A DNA stretch of 64,000 bases, taken from an uncultured Lachnospiraceae bacterium (GTDB lineage Bacteria > Bacillota > Clostridia > Lachnospirales > Lachnospiraceae). The notes under the pieces are model-generated. The model searched no databases, was not told where the DNA came from, and saw only the letters and a list, made by a program, of their open reading frames with translations. Made by a program: the position numbers and the translations under genes. This document shows, piece after piece, positions 28,550 through 36,244 of this stretch. Numbering within the stretch: position 1 is the first letter of the stretch; each line of letters opens with the position of its first letter. The DNA is taken from NCBI GenBank assembly GCA_902789555.1, contig CADAOF010000001.1:373851-437850 (forward strand), in the 5' to 3' direction.

Positions 28550-28577
28550 AAAAGGGAAGGCAAGACCCTTCCCTTTT
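28550..28577 (-). terminator. intrinsic terminator of the RNase H gene
   Basis: 11-bp stem AAAAGGGAAGG (28550-28560) / CCTTCCCTTTT (28567-28577), followed on the minus strand by TCTTTTT. It begins within the stop codon of rnhA and ends the dockerin-cohesin-rnhA transcript. Confidence 0.88.
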
Positions 28578-29227
28578 TATTCGTCAGCTTTCGGCTTTTC
28601 GTCTTCCTTATGTCCCGCAGGCTCTTCCACTCCGGCAGCGATCTTGGCCAGTCTGTCCGCCCGGTCGTTGCCGGCATTGCCGGAATGCCCCTTTACCTTC
28701 ACGAACTGAATGTTCAGGCGGTCCTTCACGCTTTCGTAAAACGCCTTATAGCGGATGGTCCCCTCCTTGTTCGTCTTCCACTCGCCGGTGCACCATTTGG
28801 CGATGCCTTCATAATCGTGGTAGATCACGACCGTCCGGATCCCCCGCGCGATCGCCCATCGGATGGTCTCCTCCGACGCGGTGATCTCGCCCGCGACGTT
28901 CCGCATGGAAGCCATCTCCGGCTCCCAGTCGGAACCCGAAAGTTCAAATGTCTCACCGCCGCAGCAGATGTACGCGCCCCAGCCGAAGACGGCGGTCGCC
29001 GGGTTGAAGCTTCCGTCGACCCAGGCTTCGGCAAGAGAATCGTCCTCCGGCAGCAGCGTTGGATCCTCGTCGCCGCGTACGAAAGCGGCGGCTTCGGTGC
29101 GTGTGCGGAAGCTCTTGTACTCAGCACCGGAAAAACCGTTCACCTCTGCGCTGCAGGCATCCCAGCTCGTGTAAACGCCGGGATGCCTGCCTTTGCGCAC
29201 GGCATAATATTTATCAGCCATGTTCAT
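28577..29227 (-). CDS. rnhA: ribonuclease H with N-terminal viroplasmin-like domain
   Basis: Degrades RNA in RNA-DNA hybrids. 216 residues: an N-terminal RNA/hybrid-binding viroplasmin domain (KYYAVRKGRHPGVYTSWDACSAEVNGFSGAEYKSF-type, about 6-50; given here in part) as in eukaryote-like RNase HI, then the RNase H fold with catalytic Asp in EAWVDGSFN (about 70), Glu in NVAGEITA, Asp in VIYHDYEG and Asp in GHSGNAGNDRADRLA. A charged tail follows. Two ATGs (29227, 29221) are possible; the first is closer to the AAGG site. It starts 6 bases after the cohesin protein gene and is probably cotranscribed with it. Confidence 0.93.
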   Translation of the reverse strand: MNMADKYYAVRKGRHPGVYTSWDACSAEVNGFSGAEYKSFRTRTEAAAFVRGDEDPTLLPEDDSLAEAWVDGSFNPATAVFGWGAYICCGGETFELSGSDWEPEMASMRNVAGEITASEETIRWAIARGIRTVVIYHDYEGIAKWCTGEWKTNKEGTIRYKAFYESVKDRLNIQFVKVKGHSGNAGNDRADRLAKIAAGVEEPAGHKEDEKPKADE

Positions 29228-29233
29228 TCATCC

Positions 29234-30904
29234 TTATAAGGGGATATCGATCTCTTTCTTTTCTTCCGGAGCAGCTGCGGTCTCCGCAATTTCAGGGCTT
29301 TCGGCAGGCGCGGCTTCGGAAGTTTCCGAAGGGTCCGGAGCGGGCTCAGGGTCCGCAGGTTCTGAAACCGGCGCGGCTTCCGCAGGTTCAGGGGCAGGCG
29401 TTGTTTCCGCGGCAGGCGCGGTCCCGGGCTTTGCCGTCTTCTGCAGGGAACTGCCGGAAAGGCTCAGGAATTCCTTTTCCTCTTCGGGAGACAGCGGACC
29501 CTGTTCCTGTACGGCGAATACGGTCGCCTTGCGCGCGCGCTGCCGCCCGATCACAAGCAAAAGGATCGTCAGCAGGCAGACGGCAAGGAGTGCGGCGGCA
29601 ACGGTCGTTACCCAGCCGGGGACCTTGGTATCGCCGCCGAAGAAATTCACGCGGTAGGGTTCTGTTGTCGGAGCCTGTGTCTCTTCCGGCGTCACGGCCT
29701 CCGTCGTTTCTTCTTCGGTCGTTGTCTCCTCTTCCGTCGTCGGTTCTTCCGAGGTAGGTTCTTCGGTGGTCGGTTCCTCCGTCGTTTCCGGGATCATGAG
29801 GCTGAAGAGCCGCAGGATCTTTTCGTCTTCAAAGTAAGCATACAGATCAGGTTCTTCGCCGTCCTTCGCACCGTAGACAAGGAAGCGGCCGGCAGTGCCG
29901 TCGGCCGGTACCAGGCCGTTGAAGACCGTCCCGTCCTCATCCATCATCCGTTCCGCCTCGTACCCTTCGGGAACCTCAAAATCTTCCGGGAAGGGCATGA
30001 TCTCAAGGGTCTGAGCGGGGATCCGGATCACCGGGACCGCTTCGGTGGTCTCCTCGGGAGTCGTTTCCTCCGGCGTCGTTTCAGGAGGTGCGGTCGGCTG
30101 TGTCGGCGGAACGGTCGGCGGCTGCGTGGGCGGCTCAGTCGGCTTCGGCGGGCGGGTGATCAGGAAATGATACATCACCGCCGTTTTGCCGTCCTGCGCC
30201 GTGCACTTGATGTAGAAATTGATCGTCGTGTCTGTCAGTGCGATCTTGCCGGGTTTCGTATAAGGCCAGTAACCCACCTGAGCATGACTCTCCATCGTCT
30301 TAAACTGGAAGGTCAGCTCCGAGGTGTATTCACTCAAGTTGATGGCGTATTCTGTCACGTTCGGGTCGAAGTTCCTGTTCCAGCTGCCCGGTACGATCGT
30401 CAGGGAGGCAAGATGCGCTTCAGAGGAGGCGGTCGGCTTCTGGTTGATGGTGACCGCAGCCTGGTTTGCCACTGATGACGGCTGCGGATCGCCTGCCGCG
30501 TCAGTGATCTCAACGACTTCCGAGACCTTGACCCAGCCAGATCCGGCCTTCAGCGTCTTAAAGGTAAAGGTATAGGTTGCCGCTTTCGCACCGCTCGACG
30601 CATAGTCGTTGATGCTGATGCTGTTTGCATTATAGGAAATGCTCGCATTCCCGAGACCGCCGGAGTATCCCGTCATCTGCAGGAAATCCGAGGAGTAAGC
30701 CAGTTTTATCTCAATGCTGGCCGCTTCCGGACTGACCGTCATGCTGACAGTAACGCTGTCGCCGACGTAGCCGGATGCATTGCCGAACGAAACATTGTAA
30801 TTTGCCGCTCTCGCCGTCCGGTCTCCGATCAGAAGCGCCAGAAGGACCACCGTGCTCAGCAGCACGGCGGCTTTCATCTTTCTGAAATACCGAAGAGTCT
30901 TCAT
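29234..30904 (-). CDS. membrane-anchored cohesin-domain protein
   Basis: 556 residues. Signal peptide 1-33 (cleavage after ARA). Residues about 35-155 look like a cohesin domain: YVGDSVTVSMTVS, IEIKLAYSSDFLQMTGYS, SISINDYASSG and ATYTFTFKTLKAGSG follow the usual strand order. Residues about 160-252 form a cadherin-like beta-sandwich (LASLTIVPGSWNRNFDPNVTEYAINL). Pro/Thr-rich linkers (253-290, 373-416) flank an unassigned segment (295-370). One transmembrane helix (about 430-453) is followed by RQRARK and a 100-residue Pro/Ala/Glu-rich cytoplasmic tail. So the cohesin faces outwards on the membrane. SD AAGGAGG sits directly on the stop codon of the dockerin gene, 9 bases before the ATG. Likely an anchoring receptor for that dockerin. 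Confidence 0.8.
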   Translation of the reverse strand: MKTLRYFRKMKAAVLLSTVVLLALLIGDRTARAANYNVSFGNASGYVGDSVTVSMTVSPEAASIEIKLAYSSDFLQMTGYSGGLGNASISYNANSISINDYASSGAKAATYTFTFKTLKAGSGWVKVSEVVEITDAAGDPQPSSVANQAAVTINQKPTASSEAHLASLTIVPGSWNRNFDPNVTEYAINLSEYTSELTFQFKTMESHAQVGYWPYTKPGKIALTDTTINFYIKCTAQDGKTAVMYHFLITRPPKPTEPPTQPPTVPPTQPTAPPETTPEETTPEETTEAVPVIRIPAQTLEIMPFPEDFEVPEGYEAERMMDEDGTVFNGLVPADGTAGRFLVYGAKDGEEPDLYAYFEDEKILRLFSLMIPETTEEPTTEEPTSEEPTTEEETTTEEETTEAVTPEETQAPTTEPYRVNFFGGDTKVPGWVTTVAAALLAVCLLTILLLVIGRQRARKATVFAVQEQGPLSPEEEKEFLSLSGSSLQKTAKPGTAPAAETTPAPEPAEAAPVSEPADPEPAPDPSETSEAAPAESPEIAETAAAPEEKKEIDIPL

Positions 30905-30913
30905 AAAGCCTCC

Positions 30914-33268
30914 TTATTGCCCTGTCTGGACGATCGTACCCGTGCCGAGTATCTCGTTGCGGATCTTGATCATGTCAGACATGCGGATGTTGCCGTCATG
31001 ATTGCAGTCGGCTGCCGCGAGGTTGATTCCTTCAAGAGTACCCGTGCCCAGAATATGGTTTCTCACCTTTATCATGTCGGACATTCTGAGATTTCCGTCG
31101 CCGTTGACGTCGCCGAAAAGGAGCACGGTCCCCTGAAAGATCATTTTTCCTTCTGCGTCAGAGATTTTTACCGTGTCGCCGTTCTTCATGACGTCGCCGT
31201 TCACTTTTGCACTGCCGTCCGCACCGGACAGCGCGGCCTTCATGCCGGTGCCAAGTCCCATGTTCGTGATGAAGGCGTCCGTCTTCGTCCCGAAGGAGAG
31301 GCCGGTGACGCGGTTCCCAGAGATGATCGTATATTTCGGGTTCAGTCCGGTCGCTCCGCCGGCACAGTAGATGCTGACCGTATACACGCGCTTGTCGCCG
31401 TTCTCCGCGGTCACCGTGATCGGATAATCCGTGCTTCCGTTCTTCAGGGTGATCGTTCCTGTGCCTTCGATCTTAGCTGACGAATGATATGCCTCTGCGG
31501 AAAGCGTCACCGAGACCGGCACCTCGCCGGTAATGATGATATTGTAGTCAAGCGTGTCCTTGTCGAACTCCGGGAAGAGTTCGTACTCGCCCACCGTGAT
31601 CGATTTCAGGCGGTTGTTGATGCAGCCGTCGCCAGTCGGGCAGGGGCAGGGCTCCGCGGGAAGCCCGCTGTAGACGGGGATGTCAAAGGTGAGCGGCAGC
31701 TGGCGCAGCTCCGCATTGTAGCCGTTCGCCAGATGACGGCCTTCCGAATAAGCCCCCATCACGTTGGTCATGAACTGATGGCGGAAGTGGCCGTACGCTG
31801 CGTCACAGGAAACGTTGAATTTCTTGAAATACAACGTATGCTGGCCGACGTCCACGTAATTTTTATACAGATACAGTGCGCCGCCCTGCAGCGCCTTCAG
31901 CCGGGTATTCCAGGGGCGGCCATAGCTTGTCTGACCGCTGCCGGAACCGCTTGCGTACCACAGCCCGTGGTCGTTCGCGCTCTCACTTGCGGTCGTAAAA
32001 GCATAGATATTGTAGTAATTATAGAAGCCGGGGTACTTTGCGCTTTTCCCGTTGATGCTCGGGTTGTCCGCGTAGCCGATCTCCTGTTTGATCACGGCGG
32101 CCAGATACAGCGGAGAAATGCCGATCTCCCGGCCGATCCGGGCCAGCTCTGCCGAATAGTTGAAGACCGTTCCGTCAGCGTCAGTCACGGACGAAACCCC
32201 GAGGAAGGTGTTTTTCACGATCCGCTGCACGGCGTCCACCGTCTGATAGGGATCGTAGCTCTGGTCCAGGAACTGGAAAATATCCGTGCCGTTCAGGAAA
32301 TTGCGCGGATCCAGGAAGTAGGCGACCAGTTCGTCGGAAGCCGCGTTCCAGCTGCCGTCGTACTTCTCGTACTCGGACGTTTCGTAATCGTAAAAGTCCT
32401 TCGATTTCCAGGACGATTTTTGTTCCGGGTGGATCAGGCTGATGCCCGGGTAATCGTCCTTGCGGTTGGCTTCCTTCAGGGACGCCGTCGCCCAGCTCTC
32501 GCCGGTCTGGTTCGCCACGAACACCCAGTTCGGGTACTGCTTATGCAGGGCGATCAGCTGAGACTGATAGCTCGCCGGGAATCCCAGGAAAGTCAGATAG
32601 TCCTTATAGGCATTGGCGCCGTTGCTGATCGTCTGCGTACGGACGTAGTTCCCGCTCACGTAACCGACGATCTCCTGGCCGTTAACGATATACCCGGTCG
32701 AAACGAGGTACCAGCCATTCTCTTCTCCCTTCACCTCCAGCACGACGCCGCGTCTCACCCAGGCCAGCTGGGCATAGGTCTTAGCGGGACCCGTACGCAG
32801 CTCGAGCGGCGCCTTGATGGTGGTCAGCGCCAGCTTCACCGGCGCGGTCACCGTATCCACGGGAAAACTGCGGTAGGGAACGGTATAAGGCGCGTCCGGG
32901 AAGGGATCCGGCGGCGCGGTCGTCTCCTCGGGTGTCGTCTCTTCGGGAGTGGTCTCCTCAGGCACCGTAGTCGTTTCCTCAGGCACCGTAGTTGTTTCCT
33001 CAGGCACCGTGGTCGTCTCCTCAGGCACCGTAGTCGTTTCCTCAGGCACCGTGGTCGTCTCATCGGACGCCGCGGTCGTTTCATCGGACGCTGCGGTCGT
33101 CTCCTCCGTGCCGTCCGATGAGGATTCCGTGGAGACCGCTCCTTCCAGTGAGGTCGCCGGCGGTTCGTCCGCCAGTGCCGGACGGGAAATCAGTGACAGC
33201 AAAAGCAGGAGGGCCAGTAAGGCACTCCCTGCTCTTCTCATCAGTTTTGCTGACTCCCGTCTGTTCAC
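30914..33268 (-). CDS. secreted SH3b/glucosaminidase-type cell-wall hydrolase with C-terminal dockerin
   Basis: 784 residues. GTG start at 33268 with AGGAG 8 bases upstream. Signal peptide 1-33 (ALA/DE). Residues 55-117 are Thr/Glu/Pro repeats (TTVPEET). An SH3b-like wall-binding domain covers about 150-212 (APLELRTGPAKTYAQLAWV ... GYVSGNYV). The catalytic domain about 230-510 resembles endo-beta-N-acetylglucosaminidase; LAAVIKQEIGY contains the probable catalytic Glu396. A cadherin-like beta-sandwich lies at about 552-635. The end is a dockerin with two calcium-loop repeats, DVNGDGNLRMSD (720-731) and DCNHDGNIRMSD (754-765), each followed by an IK-RN-ILGTG helix. First gene of the operon with the cohesin protein. 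Probably cleaves peptidoglycan while docked on the membrane. Confidence 0.88.
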   Translation of the reverse strand: MNRRESAKLMRRAGSALLALLLLLSLISRPALADEPPATSLEGAVSTESSSDGTEETTAASDETTAASDETTTVPEETTTVPEETTTVPEETTTVPEETTTVPEETTPEETTPEETTAPPDPFPDAPYTVPYRSFPVDTVTAPVKLALTTIKAPLELRTGPAKTYAQLAWVRRGVVLEVKGEENGWYLVSTGYIVNGQEIVGYVSGNYVRTQTISNGANAYKDYLTFLGFPASYQSQLIALHKQYPNWVFVANQTGESWATASLKEANRKDDYPGISLIHPEQKSSWKSKDFYDYETSEYEKYDGSWNAASDELVAYFLDPRNFLNGTDIFQFLDQSYDPYQTVDAVQRIVKNTFLGVSSVTDADGTVFNYSAELARIGREIGISPLYLAAVIKQEIGYADNPSINGKSAKYPGFYNYYNIYAFTTASESANDHGLWYASGSGSGQTSYGRPWNTRLKALQGGALYLYKNYVDVGQHTLYFKKFNVSCDAAYGHFRHQFMTNVMGAYSEGRHLANGYNAELRQLPLTFDIPVYSGLPAEPCPCPTGDGCINNRLKSITVGEYELFPEFDKDTLDYNIIITGEVPVSVTLSAEAYHSSAKIEGTGTITLKNGSTDYPITVTAENGDKRVYTVSIYCAGGATGLNPKYTIISGNRVTGLSFGTKTDAFITNMGLGTGMKAALSGADGSAKVNGDVMKNGDTVKISDAEGKMIFQGTVLLFGDVNGDGNLRMSDMIKVRNHILGTGTLEGINLAAADCNHDGNIRMSDMIKIRNEILGTGTIVQTGQ
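32920..33103 (-). repeat. 21-bp tandem repeats in the dockerin-hydrolase gene
   Basis: Five near-identical 21-bp units (plus strand CAGGCACCGTAGTCGTTTCCT-like) code for TTVPEET; flanking diverged units code for TTAASDE and TTPEE. Minisatellite expected to vary in copy number between strains. Confidence 0.85.
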
Positions 33269-33290
33269 GGCGTTTCTCCTGATAACACAA

Positions 33291-33344: not shown

Positions 33345-33665
33345 TCAGTCTTCCGAAGGCTTCTCGATCTGAACGATGGCCTGTTTCTGCATCGGGATGC
33401 GGCAGTTCTTGTTGTTGCCGAATTCCACGATCACGGTGTCGTCCGTCATGTCGATGATGATACCGTAAAAGCCGGCAGTGGTCAGCACGCTGTCGCCGAT
33501 CGCCATGCTGGACATCAGTTCCTGCTGCTGTTTTTTCTGTTTCTTCTGCGGCTTGATGATCATGAAGTACATCATGGCGCCGATCAGTGCGACGTAGACC
33601 AGAAGCACCCAGGTACCGCCGCCGGCGGCGGGAGCAGCATCAGCCGTCAGGAAAAAGTTCTGCAT
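33345..33665 (-). CDS. yajC: preprotein translocase subunit YajC
   Basis: 106 residues with one N-terminal membrane helix (about 20-38) and the family motif MYFMIIKPQKKQKKQQQELMSS, then a small beta domain (GDSVLTTAGFYGIIIDMTDDTVIVEFG). Accessory subunit of the Sec translocon with SecDF; its place downstream of tgt is the widespread tgt-yajC arrangement. Starts 13 bases after tgt. Confidence 0.94.
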   Translation of the reverse strand: MQNFFLTADAAPAAGGGTWVLLVYVALIGAMMYFMIIKPQKKQKKQQQELMSSMAIGDSVLTTAGFYGIIIDMTDDTVIVEFGNNKNCRIPMQKQAIVQIEKPSED

Positions 33666-33678
33666 ATGGTTTCCTCCG

Positions 33679-34851
33679 TCAGCCGCGCGCGAATTTTTCC
33701 TGCGCGGCAGTCTCTGACTCGCCCTCTTCCATGCGGCGGAGCTTCTCCCTCTTGTATTCGGGGAAGCGCTCCTCGTCGAGGCTTTGGCGAATCTCGCTCA
33801 TCATTGTATTATAAAAATACAAATTATGCAAGACGCAGAATCGCATTCCGAGCATTTCACCCGCTTTGAGCAGATGGCGGACGTACGCGCGGCTGTAATG
33901 CCGGCAGACCGGGCAGCCGCAGCCTTCCTCGATGGGACGGTCGTCCCGCTCGTACTTTGCGTTCAGCAGATTCATCTTGCCGTGGTTCGTATAGACGTGG
34001 CCGTGGCGGCCGTTACGGCTCGGATAGACGCAGTCGAAGAAATCGATGCCGCGCTCTACGCCTTCCAGGATGTTTGCCGGCGTGCCGACGCCCATGAGGT
34101 AAGTCGGCTTTGCCTGCGGCAGGTGGGGCACCACCGCGTCAAGGATGCGGTACATCTCTTCCGTCGGTTCGCCGACGGCGAGGCCCCCCACCGCGTAACC
34201 GGGAAGGTCGAAGGCTGAGATCTCCTCTGCATGGCGGATCCGGAGGTCCTCGAAGGTCGCGCCCTGGTTGATTCCGAAGAGGAGCTGATCGCGGTTGATC
34301 GTGGTCTCCAGTTCGTTCAGGCGCTTCTGCTCGTCGATGCAGCGCTTAAGCCACCTGGTCGTCCGGTCGATGCTCTGCGCCGCGTAATGATACTCCGCCG
34401 GGTTCTTCACGCACTCGTCGAAAGCCATGGCGATCGTGGAACCGAGGTTCGACTGGATCTGCATGCTCTCCTCCGGGCCCATGAAGATCAGCCTTCCGTC
34501 CACATGCGAATGGAAGCGGACGCCCTCTTCTTTGATCTTGCGCAGTTCCGCCAGGGAAAACACCTGAAAGCCGCCGGAATCGGTCAGGATGGGGCGATCC
34601 CAGTGCATGAAGCGGTGCAGCCCGCCGAGGTCGTGAATGACCTGATCGCCGGGCCTTACGTGCAGATGGTAGGTATTCGACAGTTCCACCTGGCAGCTGA
34701 TCTCCTTCAGGTCTTCGGTGGAAACGGCGCCCTTGATGGCGGCCACGGTGCCCACGTTCATGAAGACCGGCGTTTCGATGGTGCCGTGAACGGTCTCAAA
34801 GCGGCCGCGCTTGGCGCGGCCGGAGGTTTTCAAAAGGGTGTATTTTGCCAT
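33679..34851 (-). CDS. tgt: tRNA-guanine transglycosylase
   Basis: Exchanges G34 for the queuosine precursor preQ1 in GUN-anticodon tRNAs. 390 residues, family length. Active-site Asp in LTDSGGFQVFSL (about 85-96), GINQGATFEDLR, nucleophile Asp in FFDCVYPSRNGRHGHV and zinc ligands CGCPVCRHYSRAYVRHL with His further on. ATG at 34851 is supported by AAAGGAG 7 bases upstream. 19 bases after the MATE gene, so probably cotranscribed with it. No queuosine synthesis genes are in the window. Confidence 0.96.
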   Translation of the reverse strand: MAKYTLLKTSGRAKRGRFETVHGTIETPVFMNVGTVAAIKGAVSTEDLKEISCQVELSNTYHLHVRPGDQVIHDLGGLHRFMHWDRPILTDSGGFQVFSLAELRKIKEEGVRFHSHVDGRLIFMGPEESMQIQSNLGSTIAMAFDECVKNPAEYHYAAQSIDRTTRWLKRCIDEQKRLNELETTINRDQLLFGINQGATFEDLRIRHAEEISAFDLPGYAVGGLAVGEPTEEMYRILDAVVPHLPQAKPTYLMGVGTPANILEGVERGIDFFDCVYPSRNGRHGHVYTNHGKMNLLNAKYERDDRPIEEGCGCPVCRHYSRAYVRHLLKAGEMLGMRFCVLHNLYFYNTMMSEIRQSLDEERFPEYKREKLRRMEEGESETAAQEKFARG

Positions 34852-34870
34852 GAATGCTCCTTTCGCAGGG

Positions 34871-36244
34871 TCACCCGGCATCGGGGAAGGAAATTCGTTT
34901 TTCACAGTAAATGGCGTAGGCGCCTTCAAAGAGGGTCAGGAGGAGCCAGCCGACGGCCACGGAGTAACAGATGCCGTGGATCCCCTGTTTCGGGATCAGG
35001 ATAGCCGAAAGGATGACCCTGAGGATCACCTGTCCGGCTGACGCGATCATCGTCACCTTCAGCTTGCCGATACCGCGGAAGAATCCCTGCAGCATCTCGC
35101 CGAACATGCTGAAGATATAGAAGAATGCCATGGTGCCCGTATAGGCGGCGCCTGCCGTGATGACGGCTTCATCCGTGGAGAAGATGCCGATGAGCTGCCG
35201 CGGGATCAAAAAACAGACGATGCAGAGGATCGCCCCGTACAGGACGTCGCAGACCATGCCCTTCCGGTAAAAGCCGCGGACCCGGTCCGCGTTCCGGTGG
35301 CCGAAGTTCTGCGCCATGCAGACGACGGTCCCGGCGGATATTCCCTGCGAGACGCCCTGGAAAAGGACCTCGAGACGCATGCCCATATTGTAGCCGGTGA
35401 CCGTATCCTGTCCGAGCGGCGTCAGCATGCCCTGGATGAGCAGGCGGCCGGCATAGACGACCGTGCTCTGCATGGCTGTCGCCCAGGCATAGCTGAAGAT
35501 GATGCCGCCCATGCCCTTGTGGAGTTTAAGGTCACTCCGCGCAAGGGAAAGCTGCGGGCATTTCCGGTGGGTATAGAGCATCAGTGCAAAGGCCGATAGG
35601 ACCTGGCAGGATACCGTGGAAGCCGCGACGCCGGCAACGCCGAACTGCAGTCCCTTGATCAGCACGACGTCCAGCAGCGCATGCAGGACCGAACTGGATG
35701 CCAGGACGATGAACGGGAATCGCGAATTGCCGTAGGAGCGCAGGATCGCGGCATAATAGACGTAGAGGAAGTTGAAAATGAGGCCGCCGGCTACGACGGA
35801 CAGATAGACCATGGCCTCAGCGACGGTCTCGGCCTTCGTTTTTTCGGAGACCAGGATGGGCTTTGACGTCAGAAGCACTACCGCAGTGAGGATCAGAGAG
35901 CAAGCGATTCCGCCGGTGAGCGCCGTCGCGTGGACCTTTTTCAGTTTGTCCCACTCTCCCGCTCCGCAGAGCTGGCTGACCAGCACGCCCACGCCGGTGC
36001 AGGCACCGACGATGAGGCCGTAGACCAGGTCCATGATGGGGCTTGCGGCACTGATGCCGGAAAGGGGCAGCGTTCCGAGATAGCGGCCCACAACGATCGC
36101 GTCAACGATGTTGTAGAGCGACTGGAACAGGTTGCCGCAGATGATGGGTACGGCGAAGGTCAGCAGGGTCGGCAGCTGTCTGCCGTAGAGGATCGCTTCC
36201 TGCTTGTTCGCCGATGCCGTTTTTCCGGAATTTGTCAGTGCCAT
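34871..36244 (-). CDS. MATE family efflux transporter
   Basis: 457 residues with twelve hydrophobic helices, of the MATE (NorM/DinF-like) fold: PIICGNLFQSLYNIVDAIVVGRYLG opens helix 1-2 and the second half repeats the pattern (AWATAMQSTVVYAGRLLIQGM). Such proteins export drugs or metabolites with Na+ or H+. GGGAGGC lies 5 bases before the ATG. First gene of the transcript MATE-tgt-yajC. Confidence 0.92.
   Translation of the reverse strand: MALTNSGKTASANKQEAILYGRQLPTLLTFAVPIICGNLFQSLYNIVDAIVVGRYLGTLPLSGISAASPIMDLVYGLIVGACTGVGVLVSQLCGAGEWDKLKKVHATALTGGIACSLILTAVVLLTSKPILVSEKTKAETVAEAMVYLSVVAGGLIFNFLYVYYAAILRSYGNSRFPFIVLASSSVLHALLDVVLIKGLQFGVAGVAASTVSCQVLSAFALMLYTHRKCPQLSLARSDLKLHKGMGGIIFSYAWATAMQSTVVYAGRLLIQGMLTPLGQDTVTGYNMGMRLEVLFQGVSQGISAGTVVCMAQNFGHRNADRVRGFYRKGMVCDVLYGAILCIVCFLIPRQLIGIFSTDEAVITAGAAYTGTMAFFYIFSMFGEMLQGFFRGIGKLKVTMIASAGQVILRVILSAILIPKQGIHGICYSVAVGWLLLTLFEGAYAIYCEKRISFPDAG

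What the first reader, a model, noticed from the sequence alone, without database searches (positions are those of the whole stretch)
29234..33268. Cohesin-dockerin pair used to tether a cell-wall hydrolase to the membrane
Two genes separated by nine bases encode a secreted SH3b/glucosaminidase-like protein with a clean duplicated dockerin (DVNGDGNLRMSD and DCNHDGNIRMSD) and a single-pass membrane protein whose outer end looks like a cohesin. Cohesin-dockerin pairing is established for cellulosomes, where it gathers glycanases. Here there are no plant-cell-wall enzymes or multi-cohesin scaffold; the ligand would be a peptidoglycan hydrolase and the receptor a one-cohesin transmembrane protein with a 100-residue cytoplasmic tail. 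Both proteins also share a cadherin-like module and Thr/Glu/Pro linkers. I infer a two-part device for placing, and perhaps sensing, wall hydrolysis at the membrane.
Basis: partly seen in the sequence, partly recalled or inferred. Interest (0 to 1): 0.8.

Follow-up and report, generated by a model that had tools for sequence, protein, structure and literature searches.

The report
Membrane dock for cell-wall enzymes
A bacterium related to gut and rumen species appears to hold a cell-wall-cutting enzyme at its own membrane with the same plug-and-socket modules that other bacteria use to build plant-digesting machines, and in related species plug and socket have changed type together.

Summary
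Window 30914-33268(-) encodes a secreted SH3b/glucosaminidase/cadherin-like protein ending in a duplicated type I dockerin. Nine bases on, 29234-30904(-) encodes a cohesin, cadherin-like, one-TM protein with a ~103-residue tail. The cohesin is below Pfam's cut-off alone, but a 21-row profile reaches solved cohesins at E 4e-6.

Main new evidence: in 14 genomes of the genus, dockerin and cohesin change type together (partial Mantel r 0.85, p 0.0001), while the modules on either side follow another tree. Two genomes 6% apart in the glucosaminidase differ by 54% in dockerin and 82% in cohesin. In 3 of 15 loci a D-Ala-D-Ala carboxypeptidase with its own dockerin sits between the two genes; its dockerin switches in step. 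An unlinked dockerin protein in one genome fits its genome's type. Three of the window genome's four other dockerins were compared: a separate class (32% identity or less).

Against a simple reading: of 200 Lachnospiraceae genera, 69 have the gene pair, but 43 show no listed dockerin between the domains; 31 of these have gaps shorter than any dockerin pair's, and 25 no dockerin match in the genome.

Most likely a membrane dock for peptidoglycan enzymes. Binding and structure were not tested; sensing is unsupported.

The parts
30914..33268 (-). dockerin-bearing glucosaminidase gene, 784 aa, GTG start
33276..33280 (-). AGGAG, likely ribosome-binding site of the glucosaminidase gene
   Evidence: read
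32642..32806 (-). SH3b module (residues 155-209)
   Evidence: PF08239 33.3 bits
31634..32623 (-). glucosaminidase domain (residues 216-545), GH73/SagB-like
   Evidence: alignments
32081..32083 (-). codon of E396, aligned with the Glu of SagB/AtlA/AtlE that is catalytic (role recalled)
   Evidence: Q395-E396 invariant in the 6 rows and kept in the 20 rows; aligned with ALLETG/ALVETG
31361..31624 (-). cadherin-like module of the hydrolase (residues 549-636)
   Evidence: PF12733 25.3 bits
31133..31360 (-). X module before the dockerin (residues 637-712); a related stretch precedes the carboxypeptidase dockerin in L057
30917..31132 (-). duplicated type I dockerin (residues 713-784; DVNGDGNLRMSDMIK / DCNHDGNIRMSDMIK)
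   Evidence: PF00404 40.7 bits; motif hits
29234..30904 (-). cohesin receptor gene, 556 aa, single-pass membrane protein
30909..30914 (-). AGGAGG, likely ribosome-binding site of the receptor gene, at the stop codon of the hydrolase gene
   Evidence: read
30446..30811 (-). cohesin module (residues 32-153)
30146..30436 (-). cadherin-like module of the receptor (residues 157-253)
   Evidence: PF12733 19.7 bits, below cut-off; alignment
29789..30049 (-). conserved membrane-near module without a Pfam match (residues 286-372; ends ..YxYD..TLQRY in many relatives)
29546..29608 (-). transmembrane segment (about residues 433-453), basic residues after it
   Evidence: hydrophobicity scan
29237..29545 (-). 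cytoplasmic tail, about 103 residues, Ala/Glu/Pro-rich
29465..29494 (-). conserved tail motif LSPEEEKEFL (residues 471-480)
   Evidence: relaxed pattern found in 13 of 15 genus receptors
28577..29227 (-). ribonuclease H gene, downstream neighbour (context)
28550..28577 (-). terminator-like hairpin directly after the ribonuclease H gene
   Evidence: 8 found in the region, 6.0 expected by shuffles, so weak
33345..33665 (-). yajC, upstream neighbour (context; tgt at 33679-34929)

Best explanation
The 556-aa protein is a membrane-anchored, one-cohesin receptor that holds peptidoglycan-modifying enzymes close to the outer face of the cell membrane. Its main client is the neighbouring secreted glucosaminidase, which plugs in through its C-terminal type I dockerin, presumably in a calcium-dependent way. 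The enzyme would then cut glycan strands where new wall is made or remodelled, while its SH3b and cadherin-like modules help with wall contact and spacing. In some species a D-Ala-D-Ala carboxypeptidase plugs into the same receptor. The tail in the cytoplasm probably ties the dock to an inside partner. Shown by sequence: the domains, the gene order and the joint type switching of dockerin and cohesin. Inferred: physical binding, calcium dependence, the place and purpose of the cutting, and any inside partner.
For: Domain calls (4, 5, 50-52, 83). Order tgt-yajC-hydrolase-receptor-RNase H in most genus loci, with exceptions. Of 26 loci fetched from other genera, 26 have a dockerin-bearing glucosaminidase, 25 a recognised receptor gene beside it and 24 a cohesin scored in it (one search places a cohesin in the other two). 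Distance matrices, up to 14 genomes: dockerin-cohesin r 0.89, against 0.33-0.65 of the cohesin with eight other modules or genes; partial Mantel 0.854, p 0.0001, with five modules held constant; flanking-module controls X-cohesin -0.04 and dockerin-cadherin 0.05. The trees of cohesin and dockerin both unite {G001,G004,G007,G013}, which the background tree rejects (lnL 380 lower, p-AU 2e-43). The carboxypeptidase dockerin switches in step although its catalytic domain does not. The unlinked dockerin of G009 groups with its genome's type; three of the window genome's four other dockerin places were compared and are at most 32% identical to the pair dockerins. In 29 other genera the partial correlation is still 0.32, p 0.0002.
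Against: No binding or structure data; structure prediction was off. The window's cohesin alone is below Pfam's cut-off, and Pfam at E<=0.001 finds only 4 of 15 genus receptors. Of 69 genera with the gene pair, 43 have no listed dockerin between the domains; in 31 of these the gap is shorter than in any of the 26 with one, and 25 of the 43 have no PF00404 match in the genome, so the receptor's cohesin-like module is kept without dockerins. G024 keeps the receptor while its hydrolase has no dockerin. The clades tested were named after the distances had been seen. A secreted enzyme can also act in the medium or wall before or without docking.
Confidence: 0.72

Rival explanations
1. The core of the system is a glucosaminidase and a membrane partner that work together without a dockerin, like the staphylococcal SagB-SpdC peptidoglycan-release complex. 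The dockerin-cohesin contact is only one of several ways of holding them together, and the cohesin-fold module has another, older ligand.
For: 69 of 200 genera have the two genes in order; 43 without a listed dockerin, 31 of them with gaps shorter than in any dockerin pair. 12 of 12 loci fetched as dockerin-less lack one by profile, and G024 is a 13th. The same receptor type without a glucosaminidase sits directly after an LCP-type wall-polymer ligase gene in five of seven loci fetched (a sixth, L117, looks similar); Pfam confirms LCP in the two scanned. The glucosaminidase profile hits SagB (6u0o; identity of the entry recalled).
Against: In dockerin-bearing lineages the two modules switch types together, which is hard to explain without a functional contact. 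Dockerin-bearing pairs are spread over the tree of 58 chosen loci with at least 6 state changes, which fits repeated loss as well as repeated gain. SpdC is an integral membrane protein of the CAAX protease family (PMC12272431, passages), unlike this receptor.
Confidence: 0.35
2. Dockerin and cohesin are co-inherited only because they are neighbours on the DNA and are moved together by recombination; there is no functional contact.
For: The two modules lie 9 bases plus a signal peptide apart, and DNA identity of G004 and G008 drops to about 0.4 over the stretch from dockerin to cohesin (lesser dips also at the hydrolase N-terminus and in the receptor tail).
Against: The modules just outside the stretch do not follow (X-cohesin -0.04, dockerin-cadherin 0.05). 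In G013 two dockerins about 1.4 kb apart have the switched type while the carboxypeptidase catalytic domain between them does not follow. The unlinked G009 dockerin matches its genome's type (clade support 94/96, not starred).
Confidence: 0.08
3. The glucosaminidase's dockerin serves another cohesin of the genome (a surface complex with the subtilase and InlB-repeat proteins), and the neighbouring receptor holds something else.
For: The genome has a second cohesin place (36 bits, over the cut-off) and four further dockerin places in three proteins.
Against: Three of those four dockerins were compared: 32% or less identical to the pair dockerins, and a class of their own; the cohesin of the pair tracks the dockerin of the pair.
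Confidence: 0.07

Closest known systems
Cellulosome and amylosome cohesin-dockerin assembly (type I modules; e.g. Ruminococcus flavefaciens, R. bromii Sca2/Sca5)
   Same: Dockerin on a secreted enzyme, cohesin on a surface protein; R. bromii has calcium-dependent docking of a dockerin to its cells (PMC5814915, passages).
   Different: Client is a peptidoglycan glucosaminidase, one cohesin only, transmembrane anchor with a cytoplasmic tail instead of sortase or SLH anchoring, no glycanase clients seen among the four dockerin proteins of the genome.
R. flavefaciens RflaF_05439, an NlpC/P60-type protein with X-dockerin bound by the surface cohesin of ScaE (PMC3573020, passages)
   Same: A dockerin-borne enzyme of a peptidoglycan-peptidase superfamily held by a cell-surface cohesin, with an X module before the dockerin.
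   Different: Sortase-linked ScaE of a true cellulosome; binding cited there as unpublished; different enzyme class; no operon pairing mentioned in the passages read.
Single-cohesin proteins with a C-terminal TM helix, 'nonSLH-anchoring scaffoldins' (PMC11557425, passages; Lachnoclostridium sp. MSJ-17)
   Same: One cohesin plus a C-terminal membrane helix in a presumably non-cellulolytic bacterium; described there as possibly cell-associated.
   Different: The passages read mention no peptidoglycan hydrolase partner, no cadherin-like or membrane-near modules and no type switching.
SagB-SpdC peptidoglycan-release complex of Staphylococcus aureus (PMC12272431, passages)
   Same: A glucosaminidase of the same domain family held and tuned by an integral membrane protein.
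   Different: SpdC is a CAAX-protease-family protein; no dockerin or cohesin (recalled).
Clostridium perfringens glycosidase cohesin (NagJ) and FIVAR-dockerin pairs (recalled; NagJ cohesin structures are hit, best E 0.0032)
   Same: Cohesin-dockerin contact outside cellulosomes.
   Different: Joins secreted glycosidases and toxins (recalled), not a membrane receptor and a wall enzyme.

Membership tests
Type I dockerin (PF00404) | Over the curated Pfam cut-off | tested here: met
   40.7 bits against 22.9
Type I dockerin (PF00404) | Two calcium-binding F-hand-type repeats (DxNxDGxxxxxD) | tested here: met
   Pattern at residues 720 and 754
Cohesin (PF00963) | Over the curated Pfam cut-off | tested here: not met
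   18.4-21.9 bits against 24.1 for the window protein; some relatives pass (27.3, 27.4, 30.4 bits)
Cohesin (PF00963) | Homology to solved cohesins over the whole module | tested here: met
   Profile of 21 rows, 2vn5 E 4.2e-6 and 1g1k E 5.1e-6, positions 4-122 of 122
Cohesin (PF00963) | Nine-stranded beta-sandwich fold (recalled) | not testable with these tools
   Structure prediction switched off
Cohesin (PF00963) | Binds a dockerin | not testable with these tools
   Only indirect: joint switching
Cellulosome | Multi-cohesin scaffoldin | tested here: not met
   Two PF00963 places at E<=0.001 in the own genome, in two different proteins; weaker cohesins could be missed and the draft is 96.6% complete
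Cellulosome | Many dockerin-borne plant-polysaccharide enzymes | tested here: not met
   Five dockerin places in four proteins; read, none looks like a glycanase; Pfam was run on two of the four, the window hydrolase and the InlB-repeat protein
GH73-type / SagB-like glucosaminidase | Domain homology and the conserved Glu | tested here: met
   E396 kept
GH73-type / SagB-like glucosaminidase | Cuts peptidoglycan | not testable with these tools
   No assay
SagB-SpdC complex | CAAX-protease-family membrane partner | tested here: not met
   Receptor shows no such domain in Pfam
Single-cohesin TM anchor (nonSLH-anchoring scaffoldin) | At least one cohesin with a C-terminal TM helix or other wall-interacting motif | tested here: met
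   class definition from PMC11557425

The most novel reading that the evidence does not exclude
A non-cellulosomal 'wall-enzyme dock': one transmembrane cohesin is the hub for several peptidoglycan enzymes (glucosaminidase, D-Ala-D-Ala carboxypeptidase, possibly more), and the dockerin-cohesin pair is a recombining lock-and-key cassette that gives each species its own type, so that neighbours in the gut cannot plug foreign enzymes into the dock; the conserved tail couples the hub to the cell's growth or division machinery.
Probability: 0.35. Interest if true: 0.85.

Novelty: new variant of a known kind. Interest (0 to 1): 0.7.

Why it matters
Cohesin-dockerin pairing is known mostly from machines that digest food polymers. 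Here it would organise the cell's own wall enzymes at the membrane, in a conserved gene neighbourhood found in many genera of a large gut and rumen family. That gives a test-tube-ready handle (matched pairs already sorted into types by evolution) on how Gram-positive cells place wall hydrolases, and a possible source of new orthogonal cohesin-dockerin pairs.

Tried and rejected
Single-sequence search of the receptor against solved structures found only one chance-level hit. A reading as cellulosome was rejected. Pure DNA linkage as the cause of joint switching was judged unlikely on the flanking modules, the second dockerin and the unlinked dockerin. G024's only listed dockerin protein does not look like a wall enzyme, so it does not explain why G024 keeps the receptor. 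A promoter scan gave nothing above chance (1 found, 1.8 expected). Paper searches (open-licence PMC only; listings, capped) listed no paper that by title or abstract start describes a membrane cohesin paired with a peptidoglycan hydrolase; subscription journals are mostly not covered, and Peer et al. 2009 on non-cellulosomal cohesins and dockerins (recalled, not seen) may list some of these genes.

Limits of the counts: one search did not list all dockerin matches, and four pairs counted as without a listed dockerin do have one by my own profile or domain search (G164, G135, G083; G031). The 58 loci of the tree were chosen, not random. L064 and L133 were dropped from the matrix for too few aligned columns; G002 was left out of the matrices because the gene before its receptor is cut by the contig end, and G006 because no receptor was found in it. 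Some matrix cells rest on fewer than 14 genomes (Tgt missing in 2, RNase H in 2; 8 genomes have Tgt, RNase H, YajC and glucosaminidase together).

Full report
What is there. The window lies in a 2.26-Mb, 38-contig draft genome (96.6% complete); its closest named relatives found are metagenome-assembled Lachnospiraceae, one from goat omasum. On the minus strand the order is tgt, yajC, glucosaminidase (30914-33268), cohesin receptor (29234-30904), ribonuclease H, with 9 bases between the glucosaminidase and receptor genes and ribosome-binding-like sequences before both. The glucosaminidase has a signal-peptide-like start, a Thr/Glu/Pro linker, SH3b, a glucosaminidase domain, a cadherin-like module, an X module and a duplicated dockerin. 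The receptor has a signal-peptide-like start, a cohesin, a cadherin-like module, linkers, a conserved module near the membrane without a Pfam match, one transmembrane segment and a tail of about 103 residues.

Is the cohesin real? For the window protein alone the Pfam score is under the cut-off (18.4-21.9 against 24.1 bits), and at E<=0.001 Pfam's model finds the cohesin of only 4 of 15 genus receptors in whole genomes. Twenty-one aligned relatives as a profile match solved scaffoldin cohesins over the whole module (E 4.2e-6 and 5.1e-6), and 15 of the 21 rows match PF00963 at E<=0.1. I accept it as a cohesin by sequence; the fold was not predicted.

Is the enzyme a wall hydrolase? NCBIfam gives a weak SagB match (34 bits, cut-off 425). 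The profile of 17 rows matches the structures 6u0o (SagB, recalled), 6fxo (bifunctional autolysin) and 4pi7 (autolysin E) at E 5e-19 to 3e-15 and places E396 on their ALLETG/ALVETG glutamate. This Gln-Glu pair is kept in the 20 rows. Activity itself is inferred.

Distribution. In the genus, 16 of 16 genomes have a PF00404 match. In the 15 genus loci examined with a receptor (window plus 14 fetched), a dockerin gene lies next to the receptor gene (in G002 that gene is cut by the contig end and shows no glucosaminidase in the part held). In a sample of 200 Lachnospiraceae genera, 99 have the glucosaminidase-cadherin profile, 120 the cohesin profile, 79 a dockerin, and 69 have the cohesin just downstream of the glucosaminidase on the same strand. 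A dockerin is listed between them in 26 of the 69, at gaps of 353 nt or more; of the other 43, 31 have shorter gaps than that. Four of the 43 do have a dockerin on closer look (G164, G135, G083; G031), and 13 were seen to lack one. Twenty-five of the 43 show no PF00404 match at E<=0.01 in the whole genome. Of 26 loci fetched from other genera as dockerin candidates, 26 have a dockerin-bearing glucosaminidase, 25 a recognised receptor gene beside it and 24 a cohesin scored in it; one search places a cohesin in the remaining two (G228, G161).

The key test: do dockerin and cohesin belong together? In 14 genus genomes (fewer for some neighbour genes) I compared distances of dockerin, cohesin, the modules on either side and neighbouring genes. 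Dockerin-cohesin r is 0.89; the cohesin's r with the eight others is 0.33-0.65 and the dockerin's 0.42-0.71. With five modules held constant the partial Mantel r is 0.854 (p 0.0001, 9,999 permutations); the controls X-cohesin (-0.04), dockerin-cadherin (0.05) and X-cadherin (0.15) are near zero, one other control, glucosaminidase with the membrane-near module, gives 0.22 (p 0.03). G004 and G008 differ by 6% in the glucosaminidase but by 54% in the dockerin and 82% in the cohesin. Their DNA identity falls from about 0.9 to about 0.4 from the dockerin to the cohesin and then recovers to 0.7-0.9; it is also low at the hydrolase N-terminus (0.59) and in the receptor tail (0.44-0.53). The background tree and the module trees disagree strongly: {G001,G004,G007,G013} is a supported clade for both cohesin (100/99) and dockerin (100/100, with the second dockerin of G013 inside), while the background loses 380 log-likelihood units if forced to it; cohesin and dockerin each reject the background clade {G001,G004,G008,G012,G015} (p-AU 1.6e-4 and 8e-4). 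These clades were named after the distances were seen, so the p-values are optimistic. Between 29 other genera the partial correlation is weaker but present (0.32, p 0.0002).

A second client. In G010, G011 and G013 (3 of 15 genus loci) a Peptidase_S11 D-Ala-D-Ala carboxypeptidase with its own X-like stretch and dockerin sits between the two genes (135.5-142.5 bits). Its catalytic domain makes G010 and G013 closest (0.22 against 0.24 and 0.31) and so does its X stretch (0.38 against 0.62 and 0.63), but its dockerin makes G010 and G011 closest (0.32 against 0.50 and 0.51), like the glucosaminidase dockerin and the cohesin of the same genomes. A tree with the three carboxypeptidase dockerins as one clade is rejected (p-AU 2e-6). 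G009 and G006 have an unlinked dockerin protein (SpaA-type domain found in the G006 one, the only one scanned); both dockerins group with the window type (G009: 74% identity to the G009 pair dockerin; support 94/96, not starred). Three of the window genome's four other dockerin places were compared and are 32% or less identical to the pair dockerins. So one genome seems to hold two separate dockerin classes.

Mechanism. I think the receptor is a dock that keeps wall enzymes near the membrane, where a glucosaminidase can trim or free new glycan strands and a carboxypeptidase can trim stem peptides. The likeness to SagB-SpdC (PMC12272431, passages) is functional only. The nearly identical dockerin repeats would allow the dual binding mode known for type I dockerins (recalled; abstracts on it in the listing). 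The tail carries LSxEEExxFL in 13 of 15 genus receptors by a relaxed pattern, which suggests an inside partner; I found no evidence for sensing.

What does not fit. Many genera keep the glucosaminidase and the receptor without a dockerin, and another set has a receptor of the same kind (cohesin and membrane-near module) right after an LCP-type gene: five of seven loci fetched, a sixth (L117) looks similar; two were scanned with Pfam and confirmed. On a tree of 58 chosen loci (45 with, 13 without dockerin) the dockerin state needs at least 6 changes (3 forced by starred branches); gain or loss is not settled. The receptor family therefore has a wider role at the cell envelope, and the dockerin contact is one form of it.

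Prior work. The papers seen in passages describe cohesin-dockerin systems as cellulosome or amylosome parts, with hints in this direction: single cohesins with a TM helix (PMC11557425), a dockerin-borne NlpC/P60-type protein held by a surface cohesin (PMC3573020), and a single cohesin thought to anchor isolated enzymes in R. albus (PMC6118326). That last paper regards Clostridiales with few dockerins and no cohesins as most likely non-cellulosomal; genomes like this one, with weakly scoring cohesins, could fall into that class. I found no description of this pair in the searches named under Tried and rejected.

Verdict. Observation confirmed; interpretation partly supported and extended. New variant of a known kind. 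Interest 0.7. The recount of gaps (35 to 31) did not change any odds.

Noticed in passing
G000:C14 (L068:10039-17118) and contig ends L068:17128-17997, L069:10264-11148, L069:9351-10205; L067:9479-12733: A second cohesin/dockerin set in the own genome: a 2,359-aa subtilase with two dockerin places and a cohesin over the Pfam cut-off, a repeat protein and an InlB-repeat protein with dockerins of a separate class, and a small secreted protein with a weak LPXTG-type anchor match. The ends of contigs C1 and C14 may be two parts of one gene.
   Followed up: partly
L116:4694-7587, L118:3962-6933, L119:4397-7486, L120:4359-7480, L121:4291-7299: Receptors of the same kind (cohesin, membrane-near module, TM) directly after LCP-type genes (Pfam-confirmed in L116 and L119, the two scanned); the five genomes are not among those with a PF00404 match at E<=0.01. 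Several of the tails end in motifs like DDTFKVDFIDLD.
   Followed up: partly
window 29789-30049: A conserved membrane-near module (GY...LVP...YG...YxYD..TLQRY) with no Pfam match in the window protein, recognised by profile in the receptor loci with few exceptions.
   Followed up: partly
L105:6207-8324 and L106:3547-5598: Unlinked dockerin proteins of the window's dockerin type with an unassigned N-terminal domain (YGHCWISLG); a SpaA-type fold was found in L105, the only one scanned.
   Followed up: partly
L050:1-840: In G002 the gene before the receptor shows an SH3-like stretch, long Pro/Thr linkers and a dockerin but no glucosaminidase in the part held; it is cut by the contig end and may be a further client type.
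   Followed up: no
G196, G220, G137, G179, G197, G214: Lachnospiraceae genomes with 12-29 dockerins each; in G196 and G220 the glucosaminidase also bears a dockerin but has no cohesin hit beside it.
   Followed up: no
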